Made by a program: the position numbers and the translations under genes. Positions 36,360 to 42,194 of a DNA stretch of 64,000 bases are shown here, one piece after another (position 1 is the first letter of the stretch; each line of letters begins with the position of its first letter). Origin of the DNA: Antedon bifida (lineage: Eukaryota > Echinodermata > Crinoidea > Comatulida > Antedonidae); assembly GCA_963402885.1 (NCBI GenBank), contig OY727099.1, positions 13,938,001 through 14,002,000 of the forward strand. The letters are read 5' to 3'. The notes under the pieces were generated by a model, which had not been told where the DNA came from, made no database searches, and saw only the letters and a list, made by a program, of their open reading frames with translations.

Positions 36360-36371
36360 AGTGGAGGTGTA

Positions 36372-36671
36372 CTCAGGGCTTTTCCTTCTGTTATTTACTT
36401 CAGTATATTAATATTAGTAGGTACAAACATAAAAAATCATATCAAAATAAACAGTTTCTGAGAAATCAGAAAAATAAAAAAATGTTTAAAAATATCGAAA
36501 AATCGCGGTGTATTTTTTTCCCTCAGGGCTTTTCCTTCTGTTATTTACTTCAGTATATTAATATTAGTAGGTACAAACATAAAAAATCATATCAAAATAA
36601 ACAGTTTCTGAGAAATCAGAAAAATAAAAAAATGTTTAAAAATATCGAAAAATCGCGGTGTATTTTTTTCA
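36372..36671. repeat. Perfect 150-bp tandem duplication in the left subterminal region
   Basis: 36372-36521 and 36522-36671 appear identical, both starting CTCAGGGCTTTTCCTTCTG and ending in a T-run. Lack of divergence implies a recent event or an assembly duplication. Confidence 0.9.
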
Positions 36672-36878
36672 GCAGTTAGGTAATGACCTTAGTTGTAAAG
36701 GTCACGTTACCAAGTTATGTTACGTCACGTCTCCTCTCTCTCCTCGATATCGCTCGAGCTGTCAAGACGCGCTACTACACGTGTATCATTTTCCTCTCAT
36801 CACACATCCGATCGAACGAACATTTTATTATTGTCTTGCATTTTGTTATTACTTTTTGCGTCTACTCTTAGCTTCAAA
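36672..36878 (+). promoter_or_regulatory. Probable promoter of the THAP transposase
   Basis: The 200 bp between the subterminal repeat and the ATG are the GC-richest of the left end, with TTACGTCACG (CRE-like half) near 36720. Promoter role inferred from position. Confidence 0.3.
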
Positions 36879-39800
36879 ATGAAGCACTGTATGGTATATA
36901 AGTGCCATAACAAGTCACATAGAGATAAGGACGTCAGTTATCTTCGCATGCCGCTGAAAAACAAGCAATTGATGAAGAAGTGGCTTGAAGCCTTGAAACT
37001 TAAAAATCCGCCACAGAACAAAGAGTCAAGGATCTGCAGTGCCCACTTCGCGGAGGATGCCTTCAAGCTATACGGAGACAAGGGTAGAAAGACGATTCGC
37101 CCTGATGCTGTTCCAACACTGCATCTTGGCTATAAGATTCAATCGAGGCCGGAATCTTTTCGAACATCTAGCGTCAGCAGGCTTATGCCTAGTACATCAT
37201 TATTTGAAGAAAATATTGAGGTATTTACTTTTATGTTTTGTTTATTAATTATAAATTTATAATATAAATAATAATTTCACGCTGATGGTAGGTATCTAAT
37301 CTACTAGCCTATTTAGTATTATAATGGATAGCTAGGGCCTAGGCCTCCTAGCCAGTATAGAATAGTTAATATAGGACTAGCCTATATTATACTATAATAC
37401 TAGGCTATACTACTCACTTGTCTGCCAGCTAGTCCTAATAATATAATACTATAATAATAATATTATTATTATTATTGATAATAGTACTACTCTAGGCCTA
37501 GTACTACTAATACTATTCTAGCATTCATAAATATAAATGCTACTGCTGGCTAGACTAGAGAGGGGTAGGTTCCATGGTAGGCCTCTCTTTGATATCAAAC
37601 ACCATGAGAGATGCTGATCTCTTTTTCTTATGGTTATTATACTATACTCTATGGTTGACCTTGTTAATTACACTAATTAATTGATTAGTCTAATCTCTCT
37701 GTTTGAGACAATGGAAGGGCTGGAAGTGGGATGTGTTAATTATTATCACAGGCAGTATAGCCTATTCTGTGAAACTGTTTACTCTATGCCTTATCATGCA
37801 CAAGTTGTTTATCATTTATTTCATCACAATTATTAGTATTTCAGGTTTTAAAATTGTTTTAATGGGCAAGTGAACACTTTTATCTGTTTCAGGAAATAGA
37901 ATTTGTTCCAAATGTAACATCTACGCCCACAAAGGCAGTTACAAATGATTCCCTTGATGCTTCTCTTGATGTTACACCACAACACGAAGATGATCCAAGT
38001 TTCCATTTGGTTAGTGGGAGCAGTAGTAGTAGCGACAGTGATGAGGATGTCTGCCAGGTAGAAAAAATTATACAGGCAAACAAGTACATTGTTTTTGAAG
38101 ATGAACTACTTAAACTGATAAGGTGCCAAGAGGAAAAGTGTTGTGCACCGGTGCCTGAGCCAAAACAGCACACAGTTGGTAGCATGCTTAGAATAACGGG
38201 AACATGTTTATCCGGCCATGATTTCTATTGGACATCACAGCCTATGTGTGAAAGCACAAGGCGACCAGCTGGAAACATTGCTATAGCTGCTGCAACCCTC
38301 CATACTGGCAACATTTTATAAAATTCAACGTGAGTTTCTTCTTCCAAATATTGAAGAGATGTATGAATCACACATTGAAGATGTCCGGAAAAGTAAGTTC
38401 CATTTATAGTATAGTCATTTCACAATTTTGGTAAAAATAGTAGTTACTTTACTAAACTGAATTTATTGATATTAAGTTGATAATATTGTCATTTCTGTAT
38501 AATAAAATAGTATTACTGTAATGTAATGGTAATCAAACAAAAAGCAATGCAAAGCCATCCAGAAAACAAATATACTGGACATTATTTAAATGTTGTTTAC
38601 ATACTTTTGTTCCCCAGGATATGACAACCTACAGGGAAAGCTGATTGTAGCTGGAGACTGTAGGCATGATTCGCCGGGCCATAATGCGACATTTGGGACC
38701 TACTCTCTAATGGATACAGATACCGATCTGATATTGGCCTCTAAGACGGTATCAGTAAATGAGGAGGGGATACCAAATTCTCATCATCTTGAAAATGTTG
38801 GTTTAAAAAGATGTCTTGAAGAATTAAAGGTTTGAAATCTTGTGTTTTTCTGTGCTACAGTAGATGTCATGTTTTCAGTAATTTTTGTTTTGTATAATGT
38901 AGACAATACATACATGTTTATTGTTTTACAGGAACACAAACTGAATGTTGATATTATATCCACTGATCGCCACCCAATGATAGGAAAGACTTTACGTGAA
39001 AACTACCCAGAGATAAAACACGAGTATGATATATGGCACCTTGCTAAATCTGTGAGAAAGAGAGTTGCAGCTGCAGGAAGCACAAAGAGTTGCAAGTTTG
39101 GGAAAAAGGCATCATTAACCATCTGTGGTGGTCAGCCAAACCTGCAAAGGAAGTGTCACACAGCTCATGGTAGGGATTTATTAATGTAGAATGTTTAATA
39201 ATTAATCTCAAGCGACAGCAGTTTGTTTTAATCACTAATAATGCATTCTGAAATATATTTAACAACAGGAACGTTGGACCTCTATTGTGCGTCACATAGT
39301 TGACGAACATGATTGGATTTGTGGCTTCGAGTACATGAAGTGTAGTCATCCTCCACTTGAAGCAAACATGACAAAACCCTGGCTAACACCAGAAAGTGAT
39401 GCCCATAAAGCACTACAAGATATTGTTACAAATAATTTACTTCTGCGTGACTTGAAGAAGGTGAGTTATGCATTATGTATAAATAAGTAGCTTTTCAGTA
39501 TTGTGTGCATTCACTGGAGGTATTATCATTAAGATAAATTGAATACAATTTTTAATTTACTGTATTTCTATTCAGGCAACAGAATTTTGTCACACTGGAA
39601 ATTTAGAAGGATTCCATAACATGATGCTGAAGTACATGCCCAAACGTAGCAAGTTTGAGCACGAGGGAGCAATAGCTCGTACATATCTGGCTGTCATAGA
39701 CAACAACATGACATCGAACAGATCATATGCAACATTGGCCGATGGTGAAAGTCAATACCGTTTGGAGTGGTCCAAAAAATCCAGAATGTATGTGGTTAGG

Positions 39801-40069
39801 CGTGTGAAGGAAGCAAAGAAATATACCTTCAGGAAAGACTTGATGAAAGGTGTTTTTGATCGCGTCATCCACGGTTAGTTAATTGCTTTTAATCTGAACA
39901 AACATGCAATGAAAGAATTTACAGTACTGTATATACACCTTTTTATGTATTTTACTTAACAGGCAAGAAGACTAAGTCTACCCTCGTGAAAGGAAAAATG
40001 AAGAGTTATATAAAGACAAATCCAAGTAAAGCTGAAGCTGTGGCAAGCCACAAGTCAAGATTGAAATAA
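36879..40069 (+). pseudogene. THAP-domain transposase of Kolobok type, seven exons, frameshifted
   Basis: Exons 36879-37220, 37893-38392, 38618-38829, 38932-39169, 39269-39460, 39576-39873 and 39963-40069 all have GT-AG borders. Residues 1-90 are a C2CH THAP finger (CMVYKCHNK, MKKWLEALK, RICSAHF, AVPTL). Later blocks carry the presumed DDE triad: VAGDCRHDSPGHNATFG, IISTDRHPMIGK with YDIWHLAKSVRKR, and HTGNLEGFHNMMLKYMPKR. The tail is basic. Lesions: a deletion of about 20 codons with frame change near 38305 (TLHTGN joins TFYKIQ), and two frameshifts in exon 4 near 39075 and 39138. The splice sites are sound, so decay is recent, or some indels are sequence errors. Confidence 0.85.
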
Positions 40070-40756: not shown

Positions 40757-41614
40757 TCAACCATCGTCGGAATTAAAAGGAAGTCCATCCACATCTATAA
40801 ATCCTGTATAGATCCCACTATCCTCCGGATATTTGTCTCTAATTGCCCATACGCAGCATGATGGAATAGGCCTTCTGTCGTTTTTTCTTAGTCGCGAATA
40901 CACCCACCAAATGTAGCATCTATATGCGATAAATCGATAAGTTCTGAAAATAAATAAATTTACAGTCAGCAGTTGGTCAAAATACAACTGGACAGGAACA
41001 CACAATATGCAGTACACAGCCACAGTGGAAGGAGAGTATTAACATTGAATTAAATTGCATTAAATGTATTTTTATGACCCTTGCAAATCGTTAAATTTTG
41101 CACTGCAAATAAAGACTGATATTTTGCTTGGAAATTTTAGATTTTTAAGCCCTATCCTGCAGCTGGCCGAAACTAGATCGAGCGGCCGTACTAGGCCTAC
41201 ATACAATTATTACTAGCTAGGCCGGCGTACCTACCTGTTCTTAATTTCATCTTGTGTCACGCTCTCGCCAAGAATGTCCTTTTTTGAGACATAAACCAGC
41301 TCTAATACATCCTTGTCCATGCAAAGTTTTTTAAATTTCTCATTTATCAAACAGGTATTTTCTCCAATTTTGTCTTCTAATTCTACCCTCTCTCTACAAC
41401 AAACGCTCCCCTTTACATTCTTCATTAAACGGCAATTTCCACAATGACACCAATCAAGCGAGGTTAATCTCCATTCGTCTCTCTGTTGCTGGGGCCTAGT
41501 AGGCCTAGGCTGATTTACATCTTCGCCGTCGGCAGTTTGAGATGTTTGTATGGGCCTAGGTTCTGGTTCAAATGCATAACCATGTCTTTCAGGTCTAGGT
41601 CTACGATTAAACAT
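40757..41614 (-). CDS. P2X7-ballast-like domain protein carried by the transposon
   Basis: Two exons, 41614-41235 and 40943-40757 (TGA), joined in phase across a GTAGGT donor and a TTATTTTCAG acceptor, encode about 188 residues without a break. After a charged N-terminus (RHGYAFEPEPRP) comes a cysteine-rich region, WCHCGNCRLM then VCCRERVEL, then NEKFKKLCMDKDVLELVYV. Exon 2 reads YRFIAYRCYIWWVYSRLRK, IPSCCVWAIRDKYPED and IYTGFIDVDGLPF. This order matches the cytoplasmic C-terminal ballast domain of P2X7 receptors and its stand-alone invertebrate relatives; the cysteines should bind zinc. No channel segments are present, so it is not a receptor. Role in the element is unknown. It is intact while the neighbouring transposase is broken. 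Confidence 0.85.
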
Positions 41615-41800
41615 TGCCGTTTGATCCGTCTATCCACGCAATAACCACGCAAAACAATCTTAATCTTAGACTTATTATTCGTATCCTAGTTTATCGAGTC
41701 GAGAAGAGATCGATCGAGTCGAGCGCGAGGAGGATCGGCGGAGGCGCGAGGAGAGGCGAGTAAAGAAAGCCAACAGCTCGCGCATGCGCAAATTGATTGA
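41615..41800 (-). promoter_or_regulatory. Probable promoter of the ballast-domain gene
   Basis: A GC-rich, purine-biased stretch with repeated GAGTCGAG and GCGAGGAG units near 41696-41760 lies just upstream of the ATG, in contrast to the AT-rich surroundings. Role inferred. Confidence 0.35.
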
Positions 41801-41813
41801 CTCCCTAGAAAGT

Positions 41814-41848
41814 AAAAATTACCCACTTGGCTCAAGTGGGTAGTTTTT
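41814..41848. other. Perfect 9-bp hairpin in the right subterminal region
   Basis: ACCCACTTG-GCT-CAAGTGGGT (41821-41841), extended by imperfect A/T pairing. It could be a transposase-binding or cruciform site. Confidence 0.5.
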
Positions 41849-42194
41849 TAATTACGTTAATTACGCAAAAATAAATTGGTCAACCCCTAAAAAACACATC
41901 GGGAATGAAAAATTTGGCTTCCGAAGAATCTGAAAACATATATGTATAATATTTTTGGAACTTACATATATTTTTTACGATTTTTTTAAAACGCATCGTT
42001 TTTTTTCAATTTACATGCAAATGAATAGGGAAAAAGGTTTGTAATTTGAACTATCCCCCCAGATGGCATTTTTTGATGTTTTTCAGAATAACCATGCAGC
42101 ATACAACAAATTTAAAAAATACCTTAATTTAGATGAAAGTAATGTTTATTATGAACTGAATAAAATAAAAATGTGAAATTTGAGCACCTCCACT

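What the first reader, a model, noticed from the sequence alone, without database searches (positions are those of the whole stretch)
36360..42194. TTAA-flanked THAP transposon that also carries a P2X7-ballast-like gene
Seen: matching termini (AGTGGAGGTG), a TTAA on each side, exact restoration of a repeat unit on excision, and two convergent genes inside. Known: THAP transposase plus TTAA fits Kolobok; the ballast domain is the zinc-binding cytoplasmic part of P2X7 and also exists alone in invertebrates. Inferred: the ballast gene is cargo or an accessory gene of the element. This would suggest that a transposon can move ballast domains, a possible route by which a receptor gene captured one.
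Basis: partly seen in the sequence, partly recalled or inferred. Interest (0 to 1): 0.9.

Follow-up and report, generated by a model that had tools for sequence, protein, structure and literature searches.

The report
Animal jumping gene carrying P2X7-like domain
This is a known kind of animal jumping gene (Kolobok) that carries a small second gene related to the tail of the P2X7 receptor, a link published in 2022 and confirmed here in several element families of one genome.

Summary
Window 36360-42194 is a 5,835-bp element with perfect 10-bp inverted ends between two TTAA copies, inside a 21-nt repeat whose register is exact without it. It holds a THAP/DDE transposase gene and, convergent to it, an open two-exon gene with the P2X7 ballast domain (P2RX7_C E=4e-25; P2X7 structure 6u9v E=6.6e-15). 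This copy's transposase frame is broken.

In the host genome, 5 of 5 examined copies with catalytic exons carry both ballast exons. Four diverged families with TTAA ends have the same convergent pair. Of 65 ballast-like loci, 32 have a related transposase within 1.9 kb, all 32 convergent; random placement gives about 0.1. A ballast exon shows purifying selection (dN/dS about 0.09-0.13), like a transposase exon (0.07). So it is a standing second gene of the element rather than chance cargo.

This is in print: Kojima and Bao 2022 call it KolX of the Kol0 Kolobok lineage and derive the P2X7 ballast from it. Verdict: real, well supported, a new member of a known kind. What KolX does is unknown.

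The parts
36360..42194 (+). Kolobok-type DNA transposon, 5,835 bp between the TTAAs
36356..36359 (.). left TTAA target-site copy
42195..42198 (.). right TTAA target-site copy
36360..36369 (+). left terminal inverted repeat AGTGGAGGTG
   Evidence: I20
42185..42194 (-). right terminal inverted repeat CACCTCCACT
   Evidence: I20
36372..36670 (+). 150-bp tandem duplication at the left end (36372-36520 and 36522-36670), single in L039
36879..37220 (+). transposase exon 1, THAP domain
   Evidence: Pfam THAP E=4.7e-18; exon end read by eye
37893..38392 (+). transposase exon 2, with a 62-bp deletion near 38312 against three other copies
   Evidence: splice sites read by eye
38618..38829 (+). transposase exon 3 (first catalytic D by alignment)
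   Evidence: splice sites read by eye
38932..39169 (+). transposase exon 4 (second D and DxWH motif); small indels against L039
   Evidence: splice sites read by eye
39269..39460 (+). transposase exon 5
   Evidence: splice sites read by eye
39576..39873 (+). transposase exon 6 (third catalytic residue, E, by alignment)
   Evidence: splice sites read by eye
39963..40069 (+). transposase exon 7 to stop
   Evidence: read by eye
41235..41614 (-). KolX (ballast) exon 1, with six of the seven conserved cysteines
   Evidence: splice site read by eye
40757..40943 (-). KolX (ballast) exon 2 to stop, with the seventh conserved cysteine and two conserved arginines
   Evidence: splice site read by eye
36146..36359 (+). 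21-nt target repeat array, left part; it continues at 42195-42219
   Evidence: D2, D4, D5

Best explanation
A member of the Kolobok superfamily of cut-and-paste DNA transposons, of the KolX-bearing (Kol0) type, in an animal-like genome. Shown: the element, its ends and target site, the convergent gene pair, its other copies, and the same pair in other families. Inferred from the superfamily: the THAP domain docks the transposase on the element ends, the DDE domain cuts the element out and inserts it at TTAA. Inferred: KolX is a dedicated second protein of the element, a small zinc-stabilised module acting in trans; I think a helper of transposition most likely (about 0.45), a repressor or dosage control next (about 0.25), no role in transposition least. 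This copy has an open KolX and a broken transposase, so as it stands it could move only with transposase from another copy.
For: TTAA on both sides, AG...CT ends, exact repeat register. THAP E=4.7e-18 and P2RX7_C E=4e-25; P2X7 chain 6u9v E=6.6e-15. D, D, DxWH and E columns invariant in four families; seven cysteines invariant with a P2X7 stretch. 5 of 5 copies with catalytic exons have both KolX exons. Four diverged families with TTAA ends and a convergent pair. 32 of 65 KolX-like loci with a convergent transposase at 634-1,875 bp, random mean 0.12. dN/dS 0.087 and 0.128 for KolX exon 2, 0.073 for transposase exon 6. Published description of the Kol0 transposase/KolX pair.
Against: 23 of 55 transposase loci have no KolX found beside them, and one degenerate relative, L049, has none in 10 kb. 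33 of 65 KolX-like loci have no transposase in convergent reach; 22 of these are in the C8/C22 cluster. KolX is interrupted in L039, L040 and L044. dS near 2 is close to saturation, the compared partner is a relic, and two transposase exons gave no finite dS. The window transposase pieces score below the Pfam cut-off for MULE and Mutator. The transposase was not placed in a Kolobok tree. Nothing here shows what KolX does.
Confidence: 0.92

Rival explanations
1. The ballast gene is a host gene picked up by chance: passenger cargo of this element only.
For: 23 of 55 transposase loci lack a detected KolX; several KolX copies are interrupted.
Against: Same convergent pair in four diverged families with TTAA ends; 32 of 32 closely paired loci convergent; purifying selection on KolX exon 2; published as the Kol0 gene pair.
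Confidence: 0.04
2. KolX is a negative regulator or dosage control of the transposase rather than a helper, so that elements do not over-transpose.
For: It is a separate gene on the opposite strand and is conserved as a protein. In L044 it outlasts the transposase core, but in interrupted form.
Against: No functional evidence either way; survival in one decayed derivative is expected by chance.
Confidence: 0.25
3. A TTAA element of another superfamily, such as piggyBac, with an unrelated THAP gene inside.
For: [quoted passage not shown]
Against: 5'-RR/YY-3' ends as stated for Kolobok and unlike piggyBac; no piggyBac family in Pfam scans; seven cysteines present; D...D..DxWH...E order as stated for Kolobok.
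Confidence: 0.02

Closest known systems
Kolobok superfamily, Kol0 lineage (transposase + KolX); Kojima and Bao 2022, PMC9587614
   Same: TTAA target, 5'-RR/YY-3' ends, DDD/E transposase, second gene whose product resembles the P2X7 ballast
   Different: No difference found; this family could not be compared with Repbase entries here
Xenopus Kolobok transposons (PMC6004289, passages only)
   Same: THAP domain, DDE, H2CH motif, TTAA on both sides, ends beginning with AG
   Different: The passages seen do not mention KolX (0 occurrences); the full-length elements listed there are 6.8-13.9 kb
KolobokP
   Same: Kolobok with a second gene downstream on the opposite strand
   Different: [quoted passage not shown] this element has neither
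P2X7 receptor ballast domain (P2RX7_C; 6u9v and others)
   Same: Seven cysteines, two arginines, alignment over KolX residues 51-175
   Different: No channel part was found in KolX; Pfam gives P2RX7_C alone
Nanor and other invertebrate ballast (ZCD) proteins; Rump et al. 2020, PMC7016195
   Same: Short proteins with the ballast domain alone
   Different: That paper does not connect them to transposons: 'transpos' and 'Kolobok' have 0 occurrences

Membership tests
Kolobok superfamily | TTAA target-site duplication | tested here: met
   Window TTAA/TTAA; 7 of 8 other copies TTAA/TTAA, L039 TTAA/TCAA
Kolobok superfamily | termini 5'-RR and YY-3' | tested here: met
   AG...CT in the window and in all 8 other copies of the family
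[quoted passage not shown]
   Columns D13, D82, D103-x-W-H106, E226 invariant in four families; which residues are catalytic is my reading. The window frame is broken between them
Kolobok superfamily | zinc-finger (H2CH-type) residues between DxxH and E | tested here: met
   H160, H165, C176, H178 invariant, identified by my reading
Kolobok superfamily | THAP DNA-binding domain (usual in Kolobok transposases) | tested here: met
   E=4.7e-18 in the window; also in L048, L050, L051
Kolobok superfamily | transposase placed within Kolobok by phylogeny | not tested
   No reference set of Kolobok transposases was at hand
Kol0 lineage | second protein KolX with ballast similarity and seven conserved cysteines | tested here: met
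   P2RX7_C E=4e-25; seven invariant cysteines with a P2X7 stretch. By sequence; no structure was predicted
Kol0 lineage | transposase in the Kol0 clade | not tested
   As above
KolobokP | long terminal direct repeats of about 450 or 660 bp | tested here: not met
   The repeat scan of 36000-42600 gives no direct repeat of that kind among the 20 largest families; the one long repeat inside is the 150-bp tandem unit at the left end
piggyBac | piggyBac-type transposase | tested here: not met
   Pfam scans of exon pieces and of the L050 transposase list no piggyBac family
P2X7 receptor | P2X channel part joined to the ballast domain | tested here: not met
   Only P2RX7_C in the 188-aa protein

The most novel reading that the evidence does not exclude
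KolX is a nucleotide-sensing regulator of transposition: its zinc core and the two arginines it shares with the P2X7 guanosine site let the element tune its transposase to the cell's guanine-nucleotide state, and P2X7 inherited that switch together with the domain.
Probability: 0.08. Interest if true: 0.8.

Novelty: new member of a known kind. Interest (0 to 1): 0.3.

Why it matters
It confirms independently, with counts in one genome, a published claim that a domain of the medically studied P2X7 receptor is kin to a transposon gene. It adds that every close pairing found here is convergent and that KolX is under purifying selection, which suggests that the ballast was a working transposon protein whose function can be assayed.

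Tried and rejected
Chance cargo was considered and disfavoured on recurrence and selection. A THAP-ballast fusion gene in the right flank (THAP at 42574, ballast pieces at 46304-47742) was considered: the THAP frame leads to a repeat exon at 43289-44341 that ends in a stop, about 2 kb short of the ballast pieces, so I saw no sign of a fusion. The ballast pieces look like a relic with a duplicated exon 2.

The KolX search of the large protein set had 17 candidates, none at E<=0.001. Rfam on 35000-49000 gave none. A search of the host genome for P2X receptors (PF00864) was sent seven times and never answered, so whether the host has P2X genes is unknown here. No tree with P2X7 was made: the KolX families at hand plus P2X7 could not place an origin. 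The host species was not identified. No structure prediction was run, because KolX is spliced and the tool takes letter-for-letter translations.

A first distance count with one transposase query (28 of 65 near, 27 convergent) is replaced, which adds the second query. The L055/L056 copies match along nearly the whole 5.5 kb fetched, so their ends were not seen. A literature search for P2RX7_C listed five papers, none read.
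Full report
What is there. The element runs from 36360 to 42194, 5,835 bp, bounded by AGTGGAGGTG and CACCTCCACT with TTAA immediately outside on both sides. The target is a 21-nt repeat array at 36146-36359 that continues at 42195-42219; with one TTAA its register is unbroken. The array lies within an open frame that I recognise as the C-terminal part of a pogo/Tigger-type transposase, from memory only: Pfam gave no family.

Genes. On the + strand a THAP exon at 36879-37220 (E=4.7e-18) is followed by exons that I read by eye to a stop at 40069. 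The window's transposase pieces give only MULE and Mutator scores below cut-off; the uninterrupted 628-aa relative in L050 scores 39.5 bits for Mutator-like transposase, cut-off 26.5. On the - strand a two-exon, 188-residue protein scores 89.3 bits for P2RX7_C, cut-off 23.5, and matches P2X7 chain 6u9v over residues 51-175, E=6.6e-15. Aligned with KolX of two other families and that P2X7 stretch, seven cysteines are invariant, and so are two arginines, R85 and R117, which I read as R546 and R578 of rat P2X7; Rump et al. write that of the GDP-site residues only these two are conserved in invertebrates.

This copy. Against L039, L040 and L042 it lacks 62 bp in exon 2. Against L039 it lacks a few bases near 39080 and one near 39137 in exon 4. 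Its KolX is open. In L039 the transposase exons read open in the stretches printed but KolX is interrupted; KolX is open in both exons in L042 and L043, and interrupted in L040 and L044. The copies thus decay independently.

Copies. The end pattern occurs 27 times in the genome, the reversed-pattern control 4 times. I read nine copies with both ends, the window included. Five have catalytic exons (window, L039, L040, L041/L042, L043), and all five have matches to both KolX exons. L044 has lost the catalytic exons and keeps both KolX exons, exon 1 interrupted. L045, L046 and L047 have no catalytic exons and keep at most the first 54 residues of KolX. Of the eight besides the window, seven have TTAA on both sides; L039 has TTAA and TCAA. 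L043 has one mismatch in its right inverted repeat.

Other families. In the transposase core L048 is 73% identical, L050 46%, L051 34% to the L039 exons. L048 has TTAA-AGGCCAGAT ends with one mismatch in nine; L050 has TTAA-AGGAAAGGA, and its homology with L053 starts exactly at that left TTAA (the right side is cut by the end of what was fetched); L051 and L052 are 99.6% identical over exactly the TTAA-to-TTAA stretch in different flanks. L057 and L058 share 3.3 kb with ends TTAA-AGTGAAAGATACAAATATGG as inverted repeats, and KolX in both; a THAP-like open frame was found by pattern in L057, L058 was not scanned for it and no Pfam score was taken. In all four families KolX converges on the transposase. 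L049, a degenerate relative, has no KolX in 10 kb.

Genome-wide pairing. The KolX query gave 81 hits and the P2RX7_C family 42, three of them at places I added; merged, 65 loci. Two transposase queries (83 and 105 hits) gave 55 loci. Of the 65 KolX loci, 33 have a transposase within 8 kb and 32 of these are convergent, at 634-1,875 bp; the exception is the relic at 46304-47742, 6.6 kb from the window's own transposase. Random placement of the 43 KolX loci outside a C8/C22 cluster averages 0.12 near, maximum 2 in 3,000 rounds. Many loci are copies of a few families, so the 32 are not 32 independent events. Against: 23 of 55 transposase loci have no convergent KolX. Of the ten unpaired KolX loci outside the cluster, four are the truncated copies L044 to L047 and one lies some 450 bp from an end-pattern hit on C1; five are unexplained. 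The searches go exon by exon and score only the best candidates.

Selection. KolX exon 2 of the window against the two relatives at 47548-47724 and 46689-46865: dN/dS 0.087 (dS 1.96) and 0.128 (dS 1.66). Transposase exon 6 against L048: 0.073 (dS 2.48); exons 3 and 4 gave no finite dS. The two relic exons against each other: 2.2, on about 17 changes. So KolX was kept as a protein while the families diverged; dS near 2 makes the numbers approximate.

Literature. Kojima and Bao 2022 (PMC9587614; seen: abstract and outline, parts 1-3 of 6 of the text covering background and results, and sections 16 and 17) state that KolX of the Kol0 lineage is similar to P2X7 residues 476-595 and adopts the ballast fold, that P2X7 originated by fusion of a P2X4-like gene and KolX, and that Nanor is likely a domesticated KolX. 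Rump et al. 2020 (PMC7016195; abstract, sections 11 and 14, passages) found ballast proteins across animals without mention of transposons. PMC6004289 was seen as passages. Searches: KolX with Kolobok, one paper; Kolobok with P2X7, two papers, the second (PMC9319628) holding each word once and not read.

Verdict. The finding is true and its main idea is right, but published. Added here are one copy's anatomy with its target site, counts of pairing in one genome, and an estimate of selection on KolX. I did not find these in the papers I saw, but I did not see their supplements. How KolX acts is open.

Noticed in passing
window 46304-47742: A second KolX-like locus on +, with a short exon-1 piece and exon 2 twice in a tandem duplication (46689 and 47548); it looks decayed, with no transposase of its own found nearby.
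   Followed up: partly
L054; G000:C8 11.17-11.22 Mb and 21.58-22.20 Mb, C22: A cluster of 22 KolX-like loci, most with the same two stops and the same score, spaced at tens of kb, as if a KolX fossil were carried in a large amplified unit; no transposase near.
   Followed up: partly
window 42574-44341 and 35723-36359: Two neighbouring genes, one with a THAP domain (E=8.3e-18) and one transposase-like, both end in or contain the same 21-nt/7-residue repeat (NDLPMPL/V); the Kolobok element sits in the left array.
   Followed up: no
window 44631-44855: Open frame with a weak PHD-finger match (21.6 bits, below the cut-off of 24).
   Followed up: no
L057 1431-4766 and L058: A shorter (3.3 kb) Kolobok-like family whose terminal inverted repeats are over 100 bp, unlike the 10 bp of the window element.
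   Followed up: partly
G000:C13:13078397-13079164: Seven KolX exon-2-like hits within 770 bp on one strand, as if part of the exon were tandemly repeated; no transposase near.
   Followed up: no
L055 and L056: A KolX/transposase family with two copies on different contigs 99.96% identical over 5.5 kb, hence probably very recent movement; three further places on C9 and C14 score the same.
   Followed up: partly
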